Source of the DNA: an uncultured Cytophagales bacterium
GTDB taxonomy: Bacteria > Bacteroidota > Bacteroidia > Cytophagales > Thermonemataceae
Reading direction: 5' to 3'
DNA: 37,786 nt
Assembly: GCA_937911505.1 (NCBI GenBank)
Contig: CALEMF010000012.1
Location: forward strand, 1-37,786
The position numbers were made by a program, and so were the translations under genes. Positions 1 to 11,917 of this stretch are shown in pieces (the first letter of the stretch is position 1; each line of letters begins with the position of its first letter). Below the pieces are notes generated by a model. The model did not search any database and was not told where the DNA came from. It saw nothing but the letters and a program-made list of their open reading frames with translations.

Positions 1-343
1 CCTTATGGTGCGATTTAAAGACTCCTATTACAACAAAGTGCCATAGATCAAGAAAATTTCAATTCCTTATGGTGCGATTTAAAGAAGCACTCAGAATTAA
101 GCTTTCCGTTCCAATTGTAACATTTCAATTCCTTATGGTGCGATTTAAAGGGCAAAGACAACGAAAGCGGCGCTTTGAAAACCAAATTTCAATTCCTTAT
201 GGTGCGATTTAAAGTATGTTAGACCCGCTTCAAAACTTCGCCCTTAAAAATTTCAATTCCTTATGGTGCGATTTAAAGGGGAGTTTTTAATGGGTTTCCC
301 TTTTTTGTCCAAGAATTTCAATTCCTTATGGTGCGATTTAAAG
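1..343 (-). CRISPR. Type I-B CRISPR array, leader-proximal part
   Basis: Five complete identical 29-nt repeats lie at 56-84, 122-150, 186-214, 250-278 and 315-343, and a sixth is cut by the window edge at 1-20. The spacers are 35, 37, 35, 35 and 36 nt long and unrelated to each other. Read on the minus strand, the repeat begins CTTTAAATCGCACC and ends in ATTGAAAT, the 8-nt 5' handle typical of type I-B crRNA. This orientation, together with the leader and promoter to the right, means transcription runs right to left. The repeat at 315-343 is therefore the leader end, and older spacers lie outside the window. No base differences are seen among the complete repeats, consistent with an active array. 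Confidence 0.97.
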
Positions 344-553
344 CCGTTTATTTGAGAATGAAAGTAGTCGTTTTTGGGCTCAGAAACAAGTATTTTTCTT
401 GAAAGCTATGGATTGGTTGCGTCGACCTCCAGTAATACGATTTCCCCTGAAGGTCGACGCACTTCTGATTATCAGCTACTTAACCCCTAAATTCATCATT
501 TTTAAGCGTGTGTTTTACTATACAGTCAGTTCAAATATAGGAGGTCGACGCAA
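344..553 (-). promoter_or_regulatory. CRISPR leader with three GTCGAC motifs
   Basis: This 210-bp AT-rich segment lies between the cas2 stop and the first repeat. On the minus strand GTTGCGTCGACCTCC occurs at 554-540, where it overlaps the cas2 stop codon. A near copy, GTGCGTCGACCTTC, follows at 462-449, and the exact reverse complement of the first copy follows at 430-416. The last two can pair as a 10-bp stem (451-460 with 419-428). The motifs are seen directly. A role in leader recognition by the adaptation machinery or in cas2 transcript termination is inferred. Confidence 0.75.
359..389 (-). promoter_or_regulatory. Promoter of the CRISPR array
   Basis: On the minus strand TTG (389-387) is followed after 20 nt by TACTTTCA (366-359). 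This is close to the Bacteroidota sigma factor consensus TTG-N19/20-TAnnTTTG. Transcription would start about 6-8 nt further on, just ahead of the first repeat at 343. The layout resembles that of the crRNA-like RNA promoter at 9421-9451. Confidence 0.65.
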
Positions 554-1860: not shown

Positions 1861-2300
1861 GGTGAATGAGTGGGTGAGTGAATTATGGAGCTTTTGTGTT
1901 TTTTCTAGCGGTTACTACAATCTTTAAGATTTCGGTAATCTCTTTTTTAAGTGAATGTAACTTTGAAGAAGGAATAAGATCAGTTTCCTCTAAGATTTCT
2001 AACCAGAACAGGGTTTCATCAGCTTCTTCTATGACAATACTTATCTTAGCGAAGAATTCTTTTGCTGATCTGGCTCTACACGCTGCTCGATAATTAGCTG
2101 CTACAGAAGTGCTACTTCGTAAAAGCTGTTTCCCAATAATTCTAAATTCGTCGGTTTTATCAATTTGAGCGTACATTTTAACGACTCGCACCGCCATCGC
2201 TTTTGTTCGCTCCCTCATCAACTCGTTAAATCTCACTTTATTTTTCATATATGTATATTTATTAAACTTACTCACCCATTCACTCATTCGCCCATTCACC
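1861..2300. repeat. Imperfect inverted repeats flanking the S23 gene
   Basis: The plus strand at 1861-1880 reads GGTGAATGAGTGGGTGAGTG. The minus strand from 2300 down to 2269 contains GGTGAATGGGCGAATGAGTG and then AATGGGTGAGTAA. The two ends share GAATGAGT and GGGTGAGT blocks and differ by a 4-bp GAAT unit. The right copy forms the last codons and the stop of cas4. The repeats bracket the S23 reading frame and suggest a small element of about 440 bp placed between cas4 and cas1. Confidence 0.6.
1883..2248 (-). CDS. Four-helix bundle protein, S23/IVP family
   Basis: From the ATG at 2248 the product is 121 residues and almost wholly helical. It carries the family signature: a first helix with MAVRVVKMYAQ, then GKQLLRSSTSVAANYRAACRA, then KISIVIEEADETLFWLE. 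This is the S23 (23S rRNA intervening-sequence protein) fold, which also includes the Avd protein of diversity-generating retroelements. No enzymatic role is established. The reading frame stays open further upstream to 2416, but that stretch lies inside cas4 and its end repeat and lacks family similarity. The gene sits inside the cas operon, on the same strand, between inverted repeats. Confidence 0.88.
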   Translation of the reverse strand: MKNKVRFNELMRERTKAMAVRVVKMYAQIDKTDEFRIIGKQLLRSSTSVAANYRAACRARSAKEFFAKISIVIEEADETLFWLEILEETDLIPSSKLHSLKKEITEILKIVVTARKNTKAP

Positions 2301-2807
2301 TTCTTTACTCCAGCAAAAATCAAAGTAAGAGCAACTACGACAAAAGGTCTTTTTAATGCGCGGTGGACAAGCATCTTGCTGAACGATGGCTTGGATGTCA
2401 GCAAGTGTTTTTTCAATCGTTTGGATGTCTTCGTCAGTAAGGGCGGCTACTTCTTGGCGACTGCGTAGCTTGGGATACTCGATGATGGCGGTAGCATCTG
2501 AGATGCCAATTTGTTTGAGTAAGTATAGGTAGTACTTCACCTGTGCGAGATGTGCTTCCTCTACCTTATTAGATTTCTTCACCTCGTGTACCACTCGGTT
2601 TTGTGCATCGTAGAAATCAATCTTGGCGATACCTAAATCTAGTTCTGTATACTGCGTGGCACGTTGCGGGTAGCTAGTTTCGCCAATCATTTTGCCTTCG
2701 TAGACGGTGTCAGAGGTGTGCTCCATGGTGATGCTGTGGGCATGTAGCCACATTTCACGCTTACAAACGTGATAGAGGTTGACGAGAGTGGGGGTGATGG
2801 GTTTCAC
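2280..2807 (-). CDS. cas4: CRISPR adaptation nuclease Cas4
   Basis: This 175-residue RecB-family nuclease trims prespacers and helps select those next to a proper PAM. One iron-sulfur ligand is Cys15 (YHVCKREMW) and the other three are in the C-terminal cluster CPPRIKKTFCRSCSYFDFCW. The nuclease motifs are the Asp in AKIDFYD, the E-x-K in HEVKKS and the QVKYYL helix. The start is a GTG at 2807-2805 that overlaps the cas3 stop as GTGA, implying translational coupling. The C-terminal codons and stop lie within the inverted repeat of the neighbouring S23 element, so the original end of the protein may have been altered. Confidence 0.95.
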   Translation of the reverse strand: MKPITPTLVNLYHVCKREMWLHAHSITMEHTSDTVYEGKMIGETSYPQRATQYTELDLGIAKIDFYDAQNRVVHEVKKSNKVEEAHLAQVKYYLYLLKQIGISDATAIIEYPKLRSRQEVAALTDEDIQTIEKTLADIQAIVQQDACPPRIKKTFCRSCSYFDFCWSKEGEWANE

Positions 2808-7371: not shown

Positions 7372-7785
7372 TTATTTATTACTTTCGGTCTCGGTTTCTG
7401 TCTTTTTATCAGACTTATCAGAAAAGAGGTAGTTTTTGCTGAAAATACCTGCTAATAACTCAGGCAGTACTTTCTTTAAATTAGTAGTAGTTTCATAAGT
7501 CAAAACAAAGGCTGCTGCTTTTTCAAACTTAGCAGAATAATTTTCGTGCTTATAGCGTGCGAAATCTCTAGAAATCGCCTTCTTTAGCTCTTCGCATCTT
7601 ACTTGCTGTAAATAAGGTTCTAGACTTTGATAGCTTGTATCGGCAGATTTACTTTTTTGTAAGATATAGTAGATCACTTGCCCAGCCGTAAAAGCAAACT
7701 GTTCTATACTTGCTGTCTCTAAATCGGCCTTGTCCTCGGTTAGTTCCTCTACAAACTGCCTGTATTTTTTTAAATTACTTGCCAT
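7372..7785 (-). CDS. Possible internal start for the small subunit Cas11b
   Basis: Type I-B systems are known to make the small subunit Cas11 by internal translation within cas8. Here an in-frame ATG at 7785 (residue 532 of Cas8, MASNLKKYRQF) would give a 137-residue helical protein of about the expected size. No separate cas11 gene is present in the locus. The sequence alone does not prove use of this start, since no strong Shine-Dalgarno site precedes it, as is usual in Bacteroidota. Confidence 0.4.
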   Translation of the reverse strand: MASNLKKYRQFVEELTEDKADLETASIEQFAFTAGQVIYYILQKSKSADTSYQSLEPYLQQVRCEELKKAISRDFARYKHENYSAKFEKAAAFVLTYETTTNLKKVLPELLAGIFSKNYLFSDKSDKKTETETESNK

Positions 7786-9378
7786 AGTATTTATTGTATG
7801 AGTGTTATTGTTAAATTTTTCGTATAAACTGAACCATATGTTGAGTTTCCTGCGGATGTTTCCCAGCTCACTATGCTGGTTATTCTCTACTTTATCAAGG
7901 CGAATATCTTCCAGAATGGAAGTCTTCATCATCTCGTGAAACATATGTTGGGAGATCGCTTGCCTTTTAGACTTGTAAATAAAATCATAACAAGCTTGTC
8001 GGTAGCGCATTACATTCAGGTAGTTCTTTGCTGACTTGCAATACTTCTCTTCTATATCATCAAAGTATTTATAAACCCATTTATCTCCTTTAGCTTTTAC
8101 TACCAGATTGTTATTAAAGATAATTTGTAGGATTTGAGATTGGAAGATGAAAATATTACTTAGCTCAACTTGGTACTTGATATCAAATAAGTCTTCTACT
8201 AGCCATTTTCTCCCTTCCTTATCTCTGAGTTCGTACTCGAACTTGGTCACAAAATCAAAGTCTTTAAATACCAACCCATCTTTTGTATTTGTGTAGAAAA
8301 GTAAGTAGTAATTCTCAAAATCTTTATCGTGTCGCTCCCAGAGTTTTTCGATAATTTCTTTATAACTGAGCTTGAGCTCATTCTCTTTATATAAACTGAT
8401 GATACTTGCTTGCAGCTCTTCCTTGTAAATAAAAAGCGGTAAAGGGTTAGGCAACGTCTTTCTCCCTAATACTTGCTGGAATTCATAGAGTGCTTTGGCT
8501 TCTTTGTCAGAAATTCTACCGTTAATATCAAAAGTGGCTGTCTTGTGCATCAAAAAGGGCATTTTTTGATTATAGCCATTCAGAAAATTATTCGTACCGT
8601 AAATATCTCCCTGTTCATCAGACGACGTATTGTAGTCAGATGTATTGAATAGTTTGTCTGAAAGATATACCTGATGAGCCGCTTTGTATTTCTTTAGAGG
8701 CTCGTCTAAATAAAAGATGATATAATCGCTGTCCTCTAACGGCTTAAAGTGCTCCTTCTGTAATTCTAGCGAAGCTTTTTGTTGCTTATAAAGCTCTTTT
8801 TCGTCCTTATTATTAGCCTGTTCTAGTTGCTCTACCACATCTTGTAGTTGCAAGTCGAGGTGGTCTACTTTCGTAGCAAATGTATGCGCTATTGTTTCTA
8901 AGGCTGTTTTATATTTTCCTTGGGAGAAGAAGGCTTTAAATACCTTGTATTTCTCTCTTTCTTGTTGATCGGGTAGTAAGTCGAGTGCTTTTGTAAAGTA
9001 GTCTCCAAAACGTTCATCAATCTGCTTTTTATTTTTCTGCTGATTCGCTTCATATTTTACACCACCTTCTAAATGCTCTCTTTTAAACGCTACACAAAAA
9101 GGTGAGCAAGAGTGGATTGCTTTAGTAGGTAAGTCAAAGCATTTATTGGTATCGATACACCAGGCATTCACACTTAGAAACTTACATTTTTGAAGGAAGT
9201 CCGTTTCGGGTAGTTTCTTTGTATAACGTTCATATTGGACGTTATCCACATCTAAAAATATATTTTCCGATTCCTCCACAACTTTAATAAGGATATGTAA
9301 GCCTTCTCTTACTTTTGTACCAAGCGACTTAAAGCCCTCATCAAGCGTATCGGTAAATTGTACTATTTCCTTTATCAT
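7372..9378 (-). CDS. cas8b: Cascade large subunit Cas8 (TM1802/Cas8b type)
   Basis: The 668-residue protein resembles the TM1802 family of type I-B large subunits. A cysteine cluster at 74, 80, 91 and 95 (NAWCIDTNKC to HSCSPFC) is consistent with a zinc site. The C-terminal 130-140 residues are strongly helical, like the Cas11 small subunit. Cas8 recognises the PAM and stabilises the R-loop. It is the first gene of the cas8-cas7-cas5-cas3-cas4 operon. The start at 9378 follows an AT-rich leader whose upstream region is divergent from a crRNA-like RNA gene and contains that RNA's probable target. The end has a charged SDKSDKKTETETES tail. Confidence 0.9.
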   Translation of the reverse strand: MIKEIVQFTDTLDEGFKSLGTKVREGLHILIKVVEESENIFLDVDNVQYERYTKKLPETDFLQKCKFLSVNAWCIDTNKCFDLPTKAIHSCSPFCVAFKREHLEGGVKYEANQQKNKKQIDERFGDYFTKALDLLPDQQEREKYKVFKAFFSQGKYKTALETIAHTFATKVDHLDLQLQDVVEQLEQANNKDEKELYKQQKASLELQKEHFKPLEDSDYIIFYLDEPLKKYKAAHQVYLSDKLFNTSDYNTSSDEQGDIYGTNNFLNGYNQKMPFLMHKTATFDINGRISDKEAKALYEFQQVLGRKTLPNPLPLFIYKEELQASIISLYKENELKLSYKEIIEKLWERHDKDFENYYLLFYTNTKDGLVFKDFDFVTKFEYELRDKEGRKWLVEDLFDIKYQVELSNIFIFQSQILQIIFNNNLVVKAKGDKWVYKYFDDIEEKYCKSAKNYLNVMRYRQACYDFIYKSKRQAISQHMFHEMMKTSILEDIRLDKVENNQHSELGNIRRKLNIWFSLYEKFNNNTHTINTMASNLKKYRQFVEELTEDKADLETASIEQFAFTAGQVIYYILQKSKSADTSYQSLEPYLQQVRCEELKKAISRDFARYKHENYSAKFEKAAAFVLTYETTTNLKKVLPELLAGIFSKNYLFSDKSDKKTETETESNK

Positions 9379-9414
9379 GGTTCTAAGTTTTATAAATATA
9401 AAAATTATTTATCA

Positions 9415-9436
9415 GTATAATTGTAAGTATGTTCCT
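9415..9436 (+). promoter_or_regulatory. Probable self-target of the crRNA-like RNA, upstream of cas8
   Basis: Aligned without gaps from 9415, this segment matches the spacer-like segment beginning at 9483 at positions 1-5, 7-10, 13-17 and 20-22. Mismatches fall at 6, 11, 12, 18 and 19. Positions 6, 12 and 18 are those that type I Cascade flips out of the duplex, so 17 of 19 pairing positions match, including the full seed. The 5' flank is TCA, a plausible I-B PAM, and differs from the handle end AAT. The site lies 37-58 bp upstream of the cas8 start codon and covers the -33 TTG of the RNA's own promoter. Confidence 0.75.
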
Positions 9437-9451
9437 TTTATTATAGCTTTA
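9421..9451 (+). promoter_or_regulatory. Promoter of the crRNA-like RNA
   Basis: TTG at 9421-9423, a 20-nt gap and TAGCTTTA at 9444-9451 match the Bacteroidota pattern TTG-N19/20-TAnnTTTG in all but the last base. The spacing equals that of the CRISPR array promoter. Transcription would begin near 9457, just ahead of the first pseudo-repeat. The -33 element lies inside the probable Cascade target, which predicts negative autoregulation. Confidence 0.6.
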
Positions 9452-9453
9452 CT

Positions 9454-9567
9454 CTATGAGTTCTATAAGTAGGAATTGAAATGTATACTTGTTGGTATGC
9501 ACCTAATTACTTTTAATCGCACCAGTTGTAGGATTCTGCCACTCCCTACTAGTGAGGAGTGGCTTTT
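9454..9567 (+). ncRNA. crRNA-like RNA from a degenerate mini-array (CreR/CreA type)
   Basis: The plus strand carries AGGAATTGAAAT at 9471-9482, identical to the last 12 nt of the array repeat and containing the complete 8-nt handle. A 27-nt spacer-like segment follows (9483-9509). Then CTTTTAATCGCACCA at 9510-9524 equals the first 15 nt of the repeat with one change. The remaining halves of both repeats have decayed. Keeping the 3' half upstream and the 5' half downstream is what Cas6 processing and handle capture need, and is the pattern of known CreA and CreR RNAs. A promoter precedes it and an intrinsic terminator follows. Such RNAs guide Cascade, through partial pairing, to repress cas or toxin promoters without cleavage. 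The pieces are seen; expression and function are inferred. Confidence 0.8.
9538..9567 (+). terminator. Intrinsic terminator of the crRNA-like RNA
   Basis: GCCACTCC (9538-9545) pairs perfectly with GGAGTGGC (9556-9563) around a 10-nt loop and is followed by TTTTATA. It ends the mini-array unit 14 nt after the conserved part of the second pseudo-repeat. It also makes the GTG at 9559 an unlikely start for the following gene. Confidence 0.8.
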
Positions 9568-9588
9568 ATAAAGCCTATTTGTCACGCT

Positions 9589-9876
9589 ATGGATCATTTT
9601 GAGTTTAATTTTGATTACAATACTTCTTATTTAGATTTACCCACCCTTCTTCAAACGTTTGGAATCACTCGCGAAGAAATTATTTCGGCAATTGAAAATC
9701 CTAAGATGCGTCTACACGAAGTAGAAGGAGATAAGCCTACTATTTACCTAGCTACTGCTTATAGTTCAAACAAGAGGATTATAAGAGTGGCTTTTACGCA
9801 TCCTAAACTGACGCTTGATATCCTTGATGTTAAAATCGCCGAAGAAGACGATATAGAGCGCTATTTCTGTGGATAG
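9589..9876 (+). CDS. Small BrnT-like protein of unknown function
   Basis: From the ATG at 9589 the product is 95 residues. A GTG at 9559 would add ten residues but lies inside the terminator stem. The pattern is a short beta-helix start with FGITREEIISAIENP, then strands TIYLATAYSSNKRIIRVAFTH and a final EEDDIERYF. This order resembles BrnT and DUF4258-type RNase toxin folds, although the usual Ala-Arg before the last helix is here Val-Lys. The gene stands opposite in strand to the cas genes, right behind the crRNA-like RNA and without an obvious promoter of its own, so read-through past the terminator could express it. No BrnA-like ribbon-helix-helix partner is present. Family assignment is tentative. 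Confidence 0.55.
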   Translation: MDHFEFNFDYNTSYLDLPTLLQTFGITREEIISAIENPKMRLHEVEGDKPTIYLATAYSSNKRIIRVAFTHPKLTLDILDVKIAEEDDIERYFCG

Positions 9877-9906: not shown

Positions 9907-9914
9907 TATCTTTG
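9907..9914 (+). promoter_or_regulatory. Perfect -7 element ahead of the 50-residue gene
   Basis: TATCTTTG is an exact TAnnTTTG match, 28 bp before the ATG at 9943. The -33 side is only T-rich (around 9884-9891), so promoter strength is uncertain. Confidence 0.45.
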
Positions 9915-9942: not shown

Positions 9943-10095
9943 ATGTCTAATAACAAAAAGAAGTTTACTAACCCCTTCAAAGGCAAAGACAAGGCAAAAG
10001 TCTGGAAAGAGCTTTCTGAAAAATCGAAGCCTATTAGCAAAGAGGCTTTTATCAATAAGATTAAAGAAGCCCAAAAGAAAAACACTGATAAATAA
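9943..10095 (+). CDS. Small lysine-rich hypothetical protein
   Basis: This 50-codon frame runs from the ATG at 9943 to TAA at 10093-10095, two bases from the cas6 stop on the other strand. The product is very basic and helical (KKKFTNPFKGKDKAKVWKEL, then ISKEAFINKIKEAQKK). It has no membrane segment, no cysteine and no recognisable DNA-binding motif. A consensus -7 box precedes it, and codon use looks coding. It lies 66 bp after the BrnT-like gene and could be its partner, but there is no family evidence for that. Confidence 0.6.
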   Translation: MSNNKKKFTNPFKGKDKAKVWKELSEKSKPISKEAFINKIKEAQKKNTDK

Positions 10096-10097
10096 CT

Positions 10098-10919
10098 TCA
10101 TCTTCCTTCTCTCTTCTTAGTTTCCAATACAGCTAGGCAACCCATTCCTATCGCATTGGCGCGGCCTACACCGGCTGATAATACTAAGTCGTATACTTCC
10201 TTTTCTTCCGTTTGTAATTCAAAATCCATCAAATAACCCTTCAGCTTGGTTTCGGCTCGCTTGCCTTCCTTAATGGTAATTAGCTTTGACTTGGGTGTAC
10301 GGGTGGGTAATAGTTTAAAAGCAATGGGTAACGCTTCGATGTCTGTCGTCATAAAGCCTAAACCATTCGCCTGAATAGTACGCATTTTCTCTCTGATATT
10401 ATGAATAAGGTACTTGCCAAAGCGTTCGTCAGTAGGGCTGAGGTACTCTTCTCTACTTCCTTGTTTCTCCGCTACCAATACGGGTGAAAGCGTTTTAAAC
10501 TGAGCCGTTTCTGCGGGAATTTCTACAGGCAGTGCCTCTACAGTACTTACTTGGAACATAGCCTGTACTTCAGCGTCAGCAATCTGTATTAATTGATTTT
10601 GGAAAAGTCCTTTAATAAAATTTTTACTTGCCTTGCTAAGGTAGAATGAGGCAATAAAAGAAATCTGCTGACTTTTCACTTCAATGAGCAGCCGCTTCTT
10701 ATCTACATAGCGATAGGGAATATGTAGGTTAGAAAAGGTAAACAACTTGAAGTTTTTCAAGCTGACCGCTCGCTGATAGCCTTGTTCGTGCAAAAATTTT
10801 GAGTAGGTATTATCCGCTTGCGCTAAGGTTTTATAGATAGCAGCCGATAAGTAGTATTGATAGTTGATAGGAATCAAGCAAGGCTTGTTGAGTCGTTCTA
10901 GGGTGATTTTAAAGCGCAT
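10098..10919 (-). CDS. cas6: CRISPR RNA endonuclease Cas6
   Basis: The 273-residue protein has the two-ferredoxin-fold layout of Cas6. It starts MRFKITLERL and ends with the glycine-rich loop SAGVGRANAIGMGCLAV, the RNA-binding G-loop. It cuts within each repeat to leave the ATTGAAAT handle, and would also process the crRNA-like RNA. A candidate catalytic His is in NLHIPYRY, but this cannot be settled by eye. The gene is separated from cas8 by about 0.7 kb holding the RNA gene and two small frames, and has its own promoter behind the WYL regulator gene. Confidence 0.94.
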   Translation of the reverse strand: MRFKITLERLNKPCLIPINYQYYLSAAIYKTLAQADNTYSKFLHEQGYQRAVSLKNFKLFTFSNLHIPYRYVDKKRLLIEVKSQQISFIASFYLSKASKNFIKGLFQNQLIQIADAEVQAMFQVSTVEALPVEIPAETAQFKTLSPVLVAEKQGSREEYLSPTDERFGKYLIHNIREKMRTIQANGLGFMTTDIEALPIAFKLLPTRTPKSKLITIKEGKRAETKLKGYLMDFELQTEEKEVYDLVLSAGVGRANAIGMGCLAVLETKKREGR

Positions 10920-10999: not shown

Positions 11000-11917
11000 C
11001 TATTCATCTGTTTTTATATTGTTTTTTGTCCATTGTTGTACTTGCTGTGTAATCCATCCTTTCAATGTCTCCGATTGCAGCACTTTTACGTCATTGAGTA
11101 GGCTCATTACAAAGCGCCCTACTCCCTTTACATCGCAGATATTACCTGTAAAAATATAGTTTTCGCCTTCGGGCTGTATGTAAGGCTTCGCAAGCGGATA
11201 CTCTTTGATGAGCAGCCAATAAGCTTTGGGGGTTAGTTGCAGTTGTACTTCGGTACTCGTTTTACTGCTCATCCCAAATACATCAGTTTGCTCAAAGGTT
11301 TCTTGGTTGATTTGTGGTGCATCTAGTATTGCTACCGCCTCGATACGCGCTAGACTGAATGTTTTCTGTTTTTTGTCTGTCAACTCATAAGCAAGTAAAT
11401 GACTGTTGGGGTATTGTATGTTTAGGGGCTCTACGTGTCGATCACGCTGTGTATCGCTCTCTATGGAGTAGTAGCCTTTTAAAATCACCTGTTGCTTCCT
11501 TTGGATCGCCAGGGTGAGTTGGTCAATATTTTGTATAAGGCGTATATCACCAAGGGCTTTAGCTACATCGGCTTGTGCAGATACCTGATAAAGCTTTTTT
11601 ATAATAGAAGTACGTAAAGGATGATCTATGTGAAGTGTTTTTACCAACTCATTAAGTAGTTTACTTTCATCGAGTGTGAAACTAAGTACTTTTTCGGGGT
11701 ACTCTCCATACCTAATAAGATAGTAACGTTTTTCACGAGAGAAATCAGTGTCTATGTCTATTTCAAAACCTACCGCTCTTAGATGGTTGATGTACCTGTT
11801 TATTGTTCTGGGTGTTACCTTTAAATACCTGGCAAGTGTTTTTGCAGACTTAGAGGGTGTCTCATACAGGAGTCTAATGAGTTTGAGTAGATTTCTGATT
11901 TGAGGTTCTTCAGCCAT
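11000..11917 (-). CDS. WYL-domain transcriptional regulator of the CRISPR locus
   Basis: The 305-residue protein has an N-terminal helix-turn-helix (about 1-65; KSAKTLARYLKVTPRTINRY is the HTH core). A WYL domain at about 135-200 includes VILKGYYS and SHLLAYELTDKKQKTFSLARIEAV, and a C-terminal WCX-like region follows. WYL proteins bind nucleic acid or nucleotide ligands through this domain and often control cas operons and other phage defence genes. The gene lies upstream of cas6 on the same strand, with an 80-bp gap holding the cas6 promoter and two inverted repeats. Repressor versus activator cannot be told from the sequence. Confidence 0.9.
   Translation of the reverse strand: MAEEPQIRNLLKLIRLLYETPSKSAKTLARYLKVTPRTINRYINHLRAVGFEIDIDTDFSREKRYYLIRYGEYPEKVLSFTLDESKLLNELVKTLHIDHPLRTSIIKKLYQVSAQADVAKALGDIRLIQNIDQLTLAIQRKQQVILKGYYSIESDTQRDRHVEPLNIQYPNSHLLAYELTDKKQKTFSLARIEAVAILDAPQINQETFEQTDVFGMSSKTSTEVQLQLTPKAYWLLIKEYPLAKPYIQPEGENYIFTGNICDVKGVGRFVMSLLNDVKVLQSETLKGWITQQVQQWTKNNIKTDE

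What the first reader, a model, noticed from the sequence alone, without database searches (positions are those of the whole stretch)
9454..9567. Degenerate one-spacer mini-array between cas8 and cas6: a CreR/CreA-type crRNA-like RNA gene
Repeat halves are preserved exactly where processing needs them: 12 of 12 nt at the 3' end of the first pseudo-repeat (9471-9482), including the full handle ATTGAAAT, and 14 of 15 nt at the 5' end of the second (9510-9524). The other halves have decayed. The unit lies far from the array and on the opposite strand to the cas genes, with its own promoter (9421-9451) and terminator (9538-9567). CreA antitoxins and CreR RNAs described in type I systems have this layout and this location. 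A Bacteroidota I-B case with promoter, self-target and terminator all visible would be a valuable new example. Array annotation tools would miss it because there is only one spacer and the repeats are broken.
Basis: partly seen in the sequence, partly recalled or inferred. Interest (0 to 1): 0.93.

Follow-up and report, generated by a model that had tools for sequence, protein, structure and literature searches.

The report
CRISPR self-brake RNA beside toxin-like gene
Beside its CRISPR genes this bacterium carries a one-guide CRISPR-like RNA gene whose guide matches the control region of those same genes; it is predicted to hold its own immune system in check and would possibly restrain a neighbouring toxin-like gene too, and the same layout with different guides recurs in relatives.

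Summary
Between cas8 and cas6 of a type I-B locus, at 9444-9569 (+), lies a one-guide CRISPR-like RNA gene. Its guide matches 9415-9436, in the divergent cas8/RNA-gene promoter region, beside TCA; the seed-plus-CA pattern occurs exactly once in the genome. Of 16 comparable elements from 15 Bacteroidota loci, 13 carry different guides that match their own cas upstream region, 13 of 13 beside YCA, with mismatches piling up at positions 6, 12 and 18 as expected for Cascade. This is CreR-type cas autorepression: a known kind, in a new group. Two features look new. (1) Flank and second half-repeat pair in 8 of 10 two-half elements, so the guide would sit in the loop of a permuted repeat hairpin. 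(2) The gene pair downstream (9589-9876, predicted BrnT/RelE-like fold; 9943-10095, candidate antitoxin) was found in 7 of 390 genomes of the order, each time beside CRISPR genes. Here and in three relatives the target also overlaps the RNA gene's own promoter region, so one guide may control cas genes and toxin. Against: only 12 of 40 cas8 loci showed an element, three elements lack a target, and nothing is tested by experiment.

The parts
9444..9451 (+). predicted -7 box (TAGCTTTA) of the CreR gene
   Evidence: 5 of 6 fixed letters of TAnnTTTG; boxes with 5 or 6 of 6 start 29-39 nt before the guide in 7 of 7 two-half elements looked at
9458..9468 (+). 5' strand of the predicted outer stem of the RNA (stands where the 5' half of repeat 1 would be)
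9471..9482 (+). half-repeat 1, with 8-nt handle 9475-9482
   Evidence: 12 of 12 to the array repeat
9483..9509 (+). guide (27 nt); positions 1-22 match 9415-9436
9510..9524 (+). half-repeat 2 (5' half)
   Evidence: 14 of 15 to this array, 15 of 15 to the C91 array
9526..9536 (+). altered 3' half of repeat 2, 3' strand of the predicted outer stem
9538..9569 (+). terminator-like hairpin and T run
9412..9436 (+). target site: TCA (9412-9414) and protospacer (9415-9436)
9393..9400 (-). predicted -7 box (TATATTTA) of cas8
   Evidence: 5 of 6 fixed letters; no clear -33 box seen
7372..9378 (-). cas8b, first gene of the targeted operon
   Evidence: PADLOC Cas8b 1.3e-103
9589..9876 (+). ORF A, 95 aa, predicted BrnT/RelE-like fold
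9907..9914 (+). exact TAnnTTTG box (TATCTTTG) before ORF B
9943..10095 (+). ORF B, 50 aa, candidate antitoxin
10098..10919 (-). cas6, outside the targeted operon
1..345 (-). CRISPR array, cut by the contig start

Best explanation
The unit at 9444-9569 (+) has the sequence anatomy of a gene for a small crRNA-like RNA whose guide matches the cas8 promoter region beside a TCA motif, and it is predicted to lead the cell's own Cascade to that site and repress, not cut, its own cas operon (CreR-type autorepression). Shown by sequence: the half-repeats, the self-match with its motif and six-nucleotide mismatch rhythm, the same arrangement with other guides in relatives, and the conserved gene pair downstream. 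Inferred: transcription from the box at 9444-9451; capture by Cas6/Cascade; too little pairing (17 of 22) to call in Cas3; relief of repression when ordinary crRNAs or anti-CRISPR proteins tie up Cascade. Also inferred, with less confidence: because the target covers the place of the CreR promoter's -33 element too, the same complex damps the rightward transcript, including the BrnT-like ORF A behind a leaky terminator, while ORF B has its own promoter; loss of Cascade would then raise both cas genes and the toxin-like gene. cas6 lies outside the targeted operon, so the RNA could still be processed while cas8 to cas1 are held down.
For: Guide to own cas upstream region in 13 of 16 elements from 15 loci; with every sixth position free 0-6 of 3000 shuffled guides reach the score, with plain scoring 0-108 of 3000 (window 0 and 3). 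Own region is the best of 13 for 11 of 13 guides. YCA beside 13 of 13 targets against 3.4 percent background; it was not used to choose them. Mismatches over 13 under plain scoring: none at 1-5, 9 at 6, 10 at 12, 10 at 18. One exact seed-plus-CA match in the whole genome, at the cas8 promoter. Published: CreA needs seed bases 1-5 and 7-11, not 6 and 12 (PMC8501985, section read); spacers of 24 nt or less repress without interference (PMC10989794, passages). Pair ORF A/B beside CRISPR genes in 7 of 7 genomes that have it.
Against: No RNA or expression data. 28 of 40 distinct cas8 loci showed no element by the motif used, some of them with under 1 kb of upstream sequence; the closest relative L006 has none. 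3 of 16 elements (L009, L020 opposite strand, L067) have no target. In one search the handle scan also gave 13 of 24 rows without YCA (array repeats and chance matches), and the reversed control gave two chance rows. The PAM could not be checked against phage protospacers (none). No clear -33 box for cas8. A terminator stands between the RNA gene and ORF A, so control of ORF A by this promoter is the weak link; ORF A is a toxin by predicted fold only.
Confidence: 0.85

Rival explanations
1. Guard only (CreA/CrePA type): the RNA exists chiefly to silence the downstream BrnT-like toxin gene, and the fit to the cas8 promoter follows from the divergent layout.
For: In 4 of 4 ORF A/B loci with a target (window, L038, L068, L069) the target lies 56-68 nt before the guide, over the place of the CreR -33 element, against 99-154 nt in 8 others (noticed after the fact). 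ORF B has its own box in 7 of 7, ORF A in 0 of 6.
Against: Most self-targeting elements have no ORF A/B next door yet still fit the cas upstream region. No KilA-N domain as described for CreP (PMC12737573 section 3.3).
Confidence: 0.12
2. A dying remnant of an old CRISPR array with no function.
For: Broken repeats, single short spacer, patchy presence (12 of 40 loci).
Against: Thirteen different guides each fitting their own cas upstream region with YCA and six-base rhythm cannot be remnants by chance.
Confidence: 0.02
3. A solitary-repeat RNA that blocks Cas proteins by mimicry, as phage RNA anti-CRISPRs (Racr) do, with no DNA target.
For: Half or single repeats resemble Racr repeats (PMC10651486, start of abstract seen in search listings only); 3 of 16 elements have no target.
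Against: YCA beside 13 of 13 targets and free drift at positions 6, 12, 18 are marks of DNA targeting; the element lies in the host's own cas locus.
Confidence: 0.04

Closest known systems
CreR, cas-regulating RNAs of types I-B, I-E and V-A (primary paper, Liu et al. 2023, recalled and not held; seen through passages of PMC12737573, PMC13131331, PMC12948488)
   Same: crRNA-like RNA from a mini-CRISPR outside the array, guide with limited complementarity to the cognate cas promoter.
   Different: Bacteroidota; half-repeats that pair with each other across the guide; a toxin-like gene pair downstream, whereas CreR is described as generally not coupled with toxin genes (PMC12737573 passage).
CreTA (CreA guide RNA and CreT RNA toxin)
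   Same: Two degenerate repeats around a short guide; pairing at 1-5 and 7-11, free at 6 and 12 (PMC8501985 sections read).
   Different: CreA repeats both keep what Cas6 needs and yield an 8-nt and a 22-nt handle (PMC8501985 abstract); here repeat 2 has lost the cleavage-side half. Target is the cas promoter; toxin-like gene is a protein gene.
CrePA (CreA guide RNA and KilA-N protein toxin CreP; PMC12737573 section 3.3)
   Same: Protein toxin-like gene near a crRNA-like RNA in a CRISPR locus.
   Different: BrnT/RelE-like fold, no KilA-N hit; a small second gene with its own promoter box; guide fits the cas promoter too.
BrnT/BrnA type II toxin-antitoxin
   Different: No sequence family match; all relatives found in whole genomes lie beside CRISPR genes.

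Membership tests
CreR | crRNA-like unit (degenerate repeat - guide - degenerate repeat) outside the array, near the cas genes | tested here: met
CreR | guide with limited complementarity, beside a PAM, to the cognate cas promoter region | tested here: met
   17 of 22 at 9415-9436 beside TCA; 13 of 16 elements in 15 loci; PAM inferred from these targets only
CreR | RNA is made, processed by Cas6 and bound by Cascade | not testable with these tools
   needs small-RNA sequencing
CreR | represses cas genes and yields to crRNA competition or anti-CRISPR proteins | not testable with these tools
   needs gene removal and transcript measurement
CreR | generally not coupled with a toxin gene (PMC12737573 passage) | tested here: inconclusive
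   a gene with BrnT-like predicted fold follows at 22 nt, toxicity untested
CreTA | second repeat keeps the Cas6 cleavage side and yields a 22-nt 3' handle | tested here: not met
   repeat 2 has GGATT in place of GGAATTGAAAT in the window; judged from sequence only
CreTA | guide targets the promoter of a toxin | tested here: inconclusive
   target overlaps the place of the -33 element of the promoter upstream of CreR and ORF A
CreTA | toxin is a small RNA that sequesters a tRNA | not tested
   not searched for
CrePA | CreP protein, typically with KilA-N domain | tested here: not met
   no Pfam KilA-N hit for ORF A or B
BrnTA | BrnT fold in the toxin | tested here: inconclusive
BrnTA | antitoxin gene downstream that neutralises the toxin | not testable with these tools
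   ORF B follows ORF A in 7 of 7 genomes; its action is unknown

The most novel reading that the evidence does not exclude
One guide RNA, folded as a circularly permuted CRISPR repeat with the guide in its loop, holds two back-to-back promoters: that of the cas operon, and that of its own gene plus a BrnT-like toxin whose antitoxin has an independent promoter. When Cascade is lost or blocked, cas genes and toxin rise together: immune refill and self-destruct on one switch. The same toxin pair next to Cas9 and a tracrRNA-like sequence points to a CRISPR-guarding toxin family across types I-B and II.
Probability: 0.35. Interest if true: 0.87.

Novelty: new variant of a known kind. Interest (0 to 1): 0.74.

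Why it matters
It carries RNA-guided cas autorepression to Bacteroidota with an evolutionary argument: 13 unlike guides, each fitting its own cas upstream region, with the six-base pairing rhythm of Cascade written in the mismatches. It ties cas autorepression to a toxin-like gene pair that lay beside CRISPR genes in 7 of 7 genomes found, so the idea of a CRISPR-guarding toxin becomes directly testable there. It also offers a set of natural short guides that are predicted to bind without cutting.

Tried and rejected
Second target elsewhere in the genome: the seed-plus-CA pattern has one exact match and none with one mismatch; 56 with two or three mismatches (one of them the guide itself) against 39 for the reversed control, not followed. 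Phage protospacers for both arrays, to learn the PAM: none. Rfam: two matches far below gathering scores, taken as chance. Pfam, NCBIfam and PADLOC for ORF A and B: nothing over a cut-off (ORF B not given to NCBIfam). ORF A alone found only itself; a two-row profile found ten, itself included. tracrRNA-like sequences in L070/L071 were looked at by eye for a guide-like 5' part: none seen. A first target scan missed L038 because my exclusion zone was too wide; include it. The L068 handle (GGTATTGAAAT) escaped the motif and was set by hand. For the window the longest pure Watson-Crick run of the outer stem is only 3, no better than swapped pairs; its 11 pairs need G-U, although its energy of -11.9 is the best of its row. 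L067 was added to the stem test after its stem had been seen. Loci dropped as duplicates: L003, L004, L027, L028, L031, L032, L043, L044; of the 44 kept, 40 are distinct; L025 and L026 lack the start of cas8.

Full report
Setting. The window is the whole of contig C12 of a 5.0 Mb genome in 123 contigs. On the - strand lie cas8b, cas7, cas5, cas3, cas4, an IVP-like ORF, cas1, cas2 and an array that runs off the contig; cas6 is upstream at 10098-10919. The finding lies on the + strand between cas8 and cas6.

The unit. Half-repeats 9471-9482 (12 of 12) and 9510-9524 (14 of 15; 15 of 15 to a second array of this genome) flank a 27-nt guide, with a -7-like box at 9444-9451 and a terminator-like hairpin at 9538-9563. 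In the window the paired half-repeat pattern occurs only in the array and here; 0 in 100 shuffles.

Self-target. The guide matches 9415-9436 on the same strand beside TCA (9412-9414), between the divergent promoters. With every sixth position left free 0 of 3000 shuffled guides reach the score, with plain scoring 3 of 3000. The seed-plus-CA pattern occurs once exactly in the genome, there.

Relatives. cas8 searches gave 21 loci from named genomes and matches in 3 of 8, 19 of 390 and 8 of 395 genomes at family, order and phylum level (overlapping samples). Of 40 distinct loci, some with under 1 kb of upstream sequence, 12 showed a repeat-like element within 1.6 kb upstream of cas8 (judged by eye from a motif scan). 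Two more elements with a target (L068, L069) and one without (L067) came through ORF A. Of these 16 elements in 15 loci, 13 have a target in their own cas upstream region and 3 (L009, the opposite-strand one of L020, L067) have none. Guides differ from locus to locus; the own region is the best of 13 for 11 of the 13 guides put into a cross-table, and the other two are two of those without a target. YCA stands beside 13 of 13 targets against 3.4 percent of trinucleotides. In a blind scan of handles, 11 of 24 rows were such YCA targets; the other 13 were array repeats or chance, extra L008 rows included; a reversed-handle control gave 12 rows: nine array repeats, the L008 target itself and two chance rows. 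cas6 lies upstream of cas8 in 14 of 14 related loci searched for it; the element lies between the two except in L033, where it precedes cas6; in L020 it is on the cas strand.

Pairing rhythm. Under plain scoring, mismatches over 13 elements are 0 at positions 1-5, 9 of 13 at 6, 6 of 65 over 7-11, 10 of 13 at 12, 7 of 65 over 13-17, 10 of 13 at 18, and 10, 9, 8, 7 of 13 at 19-22. Positions 6, 12 and 18 drift freely and constraint ends at about 17. In Haloarcula, changes at 6 and 12 of CreA had no effect while each of the other ten seed bases mattered (PMC8501985, section read), and spacers of 24 nt or less repressed without interference or priming (PMC10989794, passages).

Structure. In 8 of 10 two-half elements the 5' flank of repeat 1 pairs with the altered 3' half of repeat 2 by runs of 7-14 pairs with G-U allowed; L008 and L009 do not. 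Own pairs beat swapped pairs: permutation p 5e-5 by energy over 9, 3.5e-5 by Watson-Crick run over 10; by the second measure the window itself does not stand out. Inside, the TTTAAT/ATTGAAA pairing of the repeat can form across the guide. The RNA then looks like a permuted repeat hairpin. Four other elements (L010, L013, L019, L021) have one near-full repeat, three of them between inverted arms (by eye).

Reading and print. The CreR part is strong by sequence; double control of the toxin-like pair is a plausible, untested extension. CreR is described for types I-B, I-E and V-A (PMC13131331, one passage; PMC12737573, passages on CreR and section 3.3; PMC12948488, one passage); the primary paper is not held and is recalled. 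PMC9458426 was seen as abstract and outline, PMC8501985 as abstract, passages and two sections. Searches listed no paper on a BrnT-like pair in such a locus or on CreR in Bacteroidota; the library lacks most subscription journals.

Noticed in passing
window 1883-2416 (-): A 23S rRNA intervening-sequence (IVP, four-helix bundle) ORF sits between cas4 and cas1 and overlaps cas4; similar-looking ORFs lie near cas4/cas1 in L068 and L069 (by eye).
   Followed up: partly
G000:C91:100909-102049 (L059): A second array of 18 repeats, one letter different from the window's, with no cas gene found in C91:88000-116737.
   Followed up: partly
G000:C110 (L058): A second cas locus: cas1 63 percent, cas4 52 percent and cas6 39 percent identical to the window's, Cas10d-like and Cas3d-like genes, own repeat; no ectopic handle seen.
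   Followed up: partly
L020:2861-3592: DUF433 and DUF5615 genes, recalled as a toxin-antitoxin pair, stand divergently; the target of the CreR-like element lies between them, and the element lies on the cas strand right before cas8.
   Followed up: partly
L036:668-1376 (-): A DUF6934 gene and a 60-aa ORF follow the CreR-like element directly.
   Followed up: partly
L010:4825-4998 and like places in L013, L019, L021: Single-repeat elements go with a small ORF (57 aa in L010) between the targeted promoter and cas8; no family hit for the L010 one.
   Followed up: no
L070:5855-7473 and L071:7055-7740: ORF A/B pair next to cas9 with a tracrRNA-like sequence in between.
   Followed up: partly
window 11000-11917 (-): HTH/WYL-domain regulator gene upstream of cas6; a similar-looking gene stands before cas6 in L067 (by eye).
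   Followed up: no
L067:8489-8614 (-): A possible two-half element with altered handle (ATTGCAAG) and a strong outer stem (-17.2 kcal/mol), no clear target; a near-full solitary repeat lies nearby next to cas6.
   Followed up: partly
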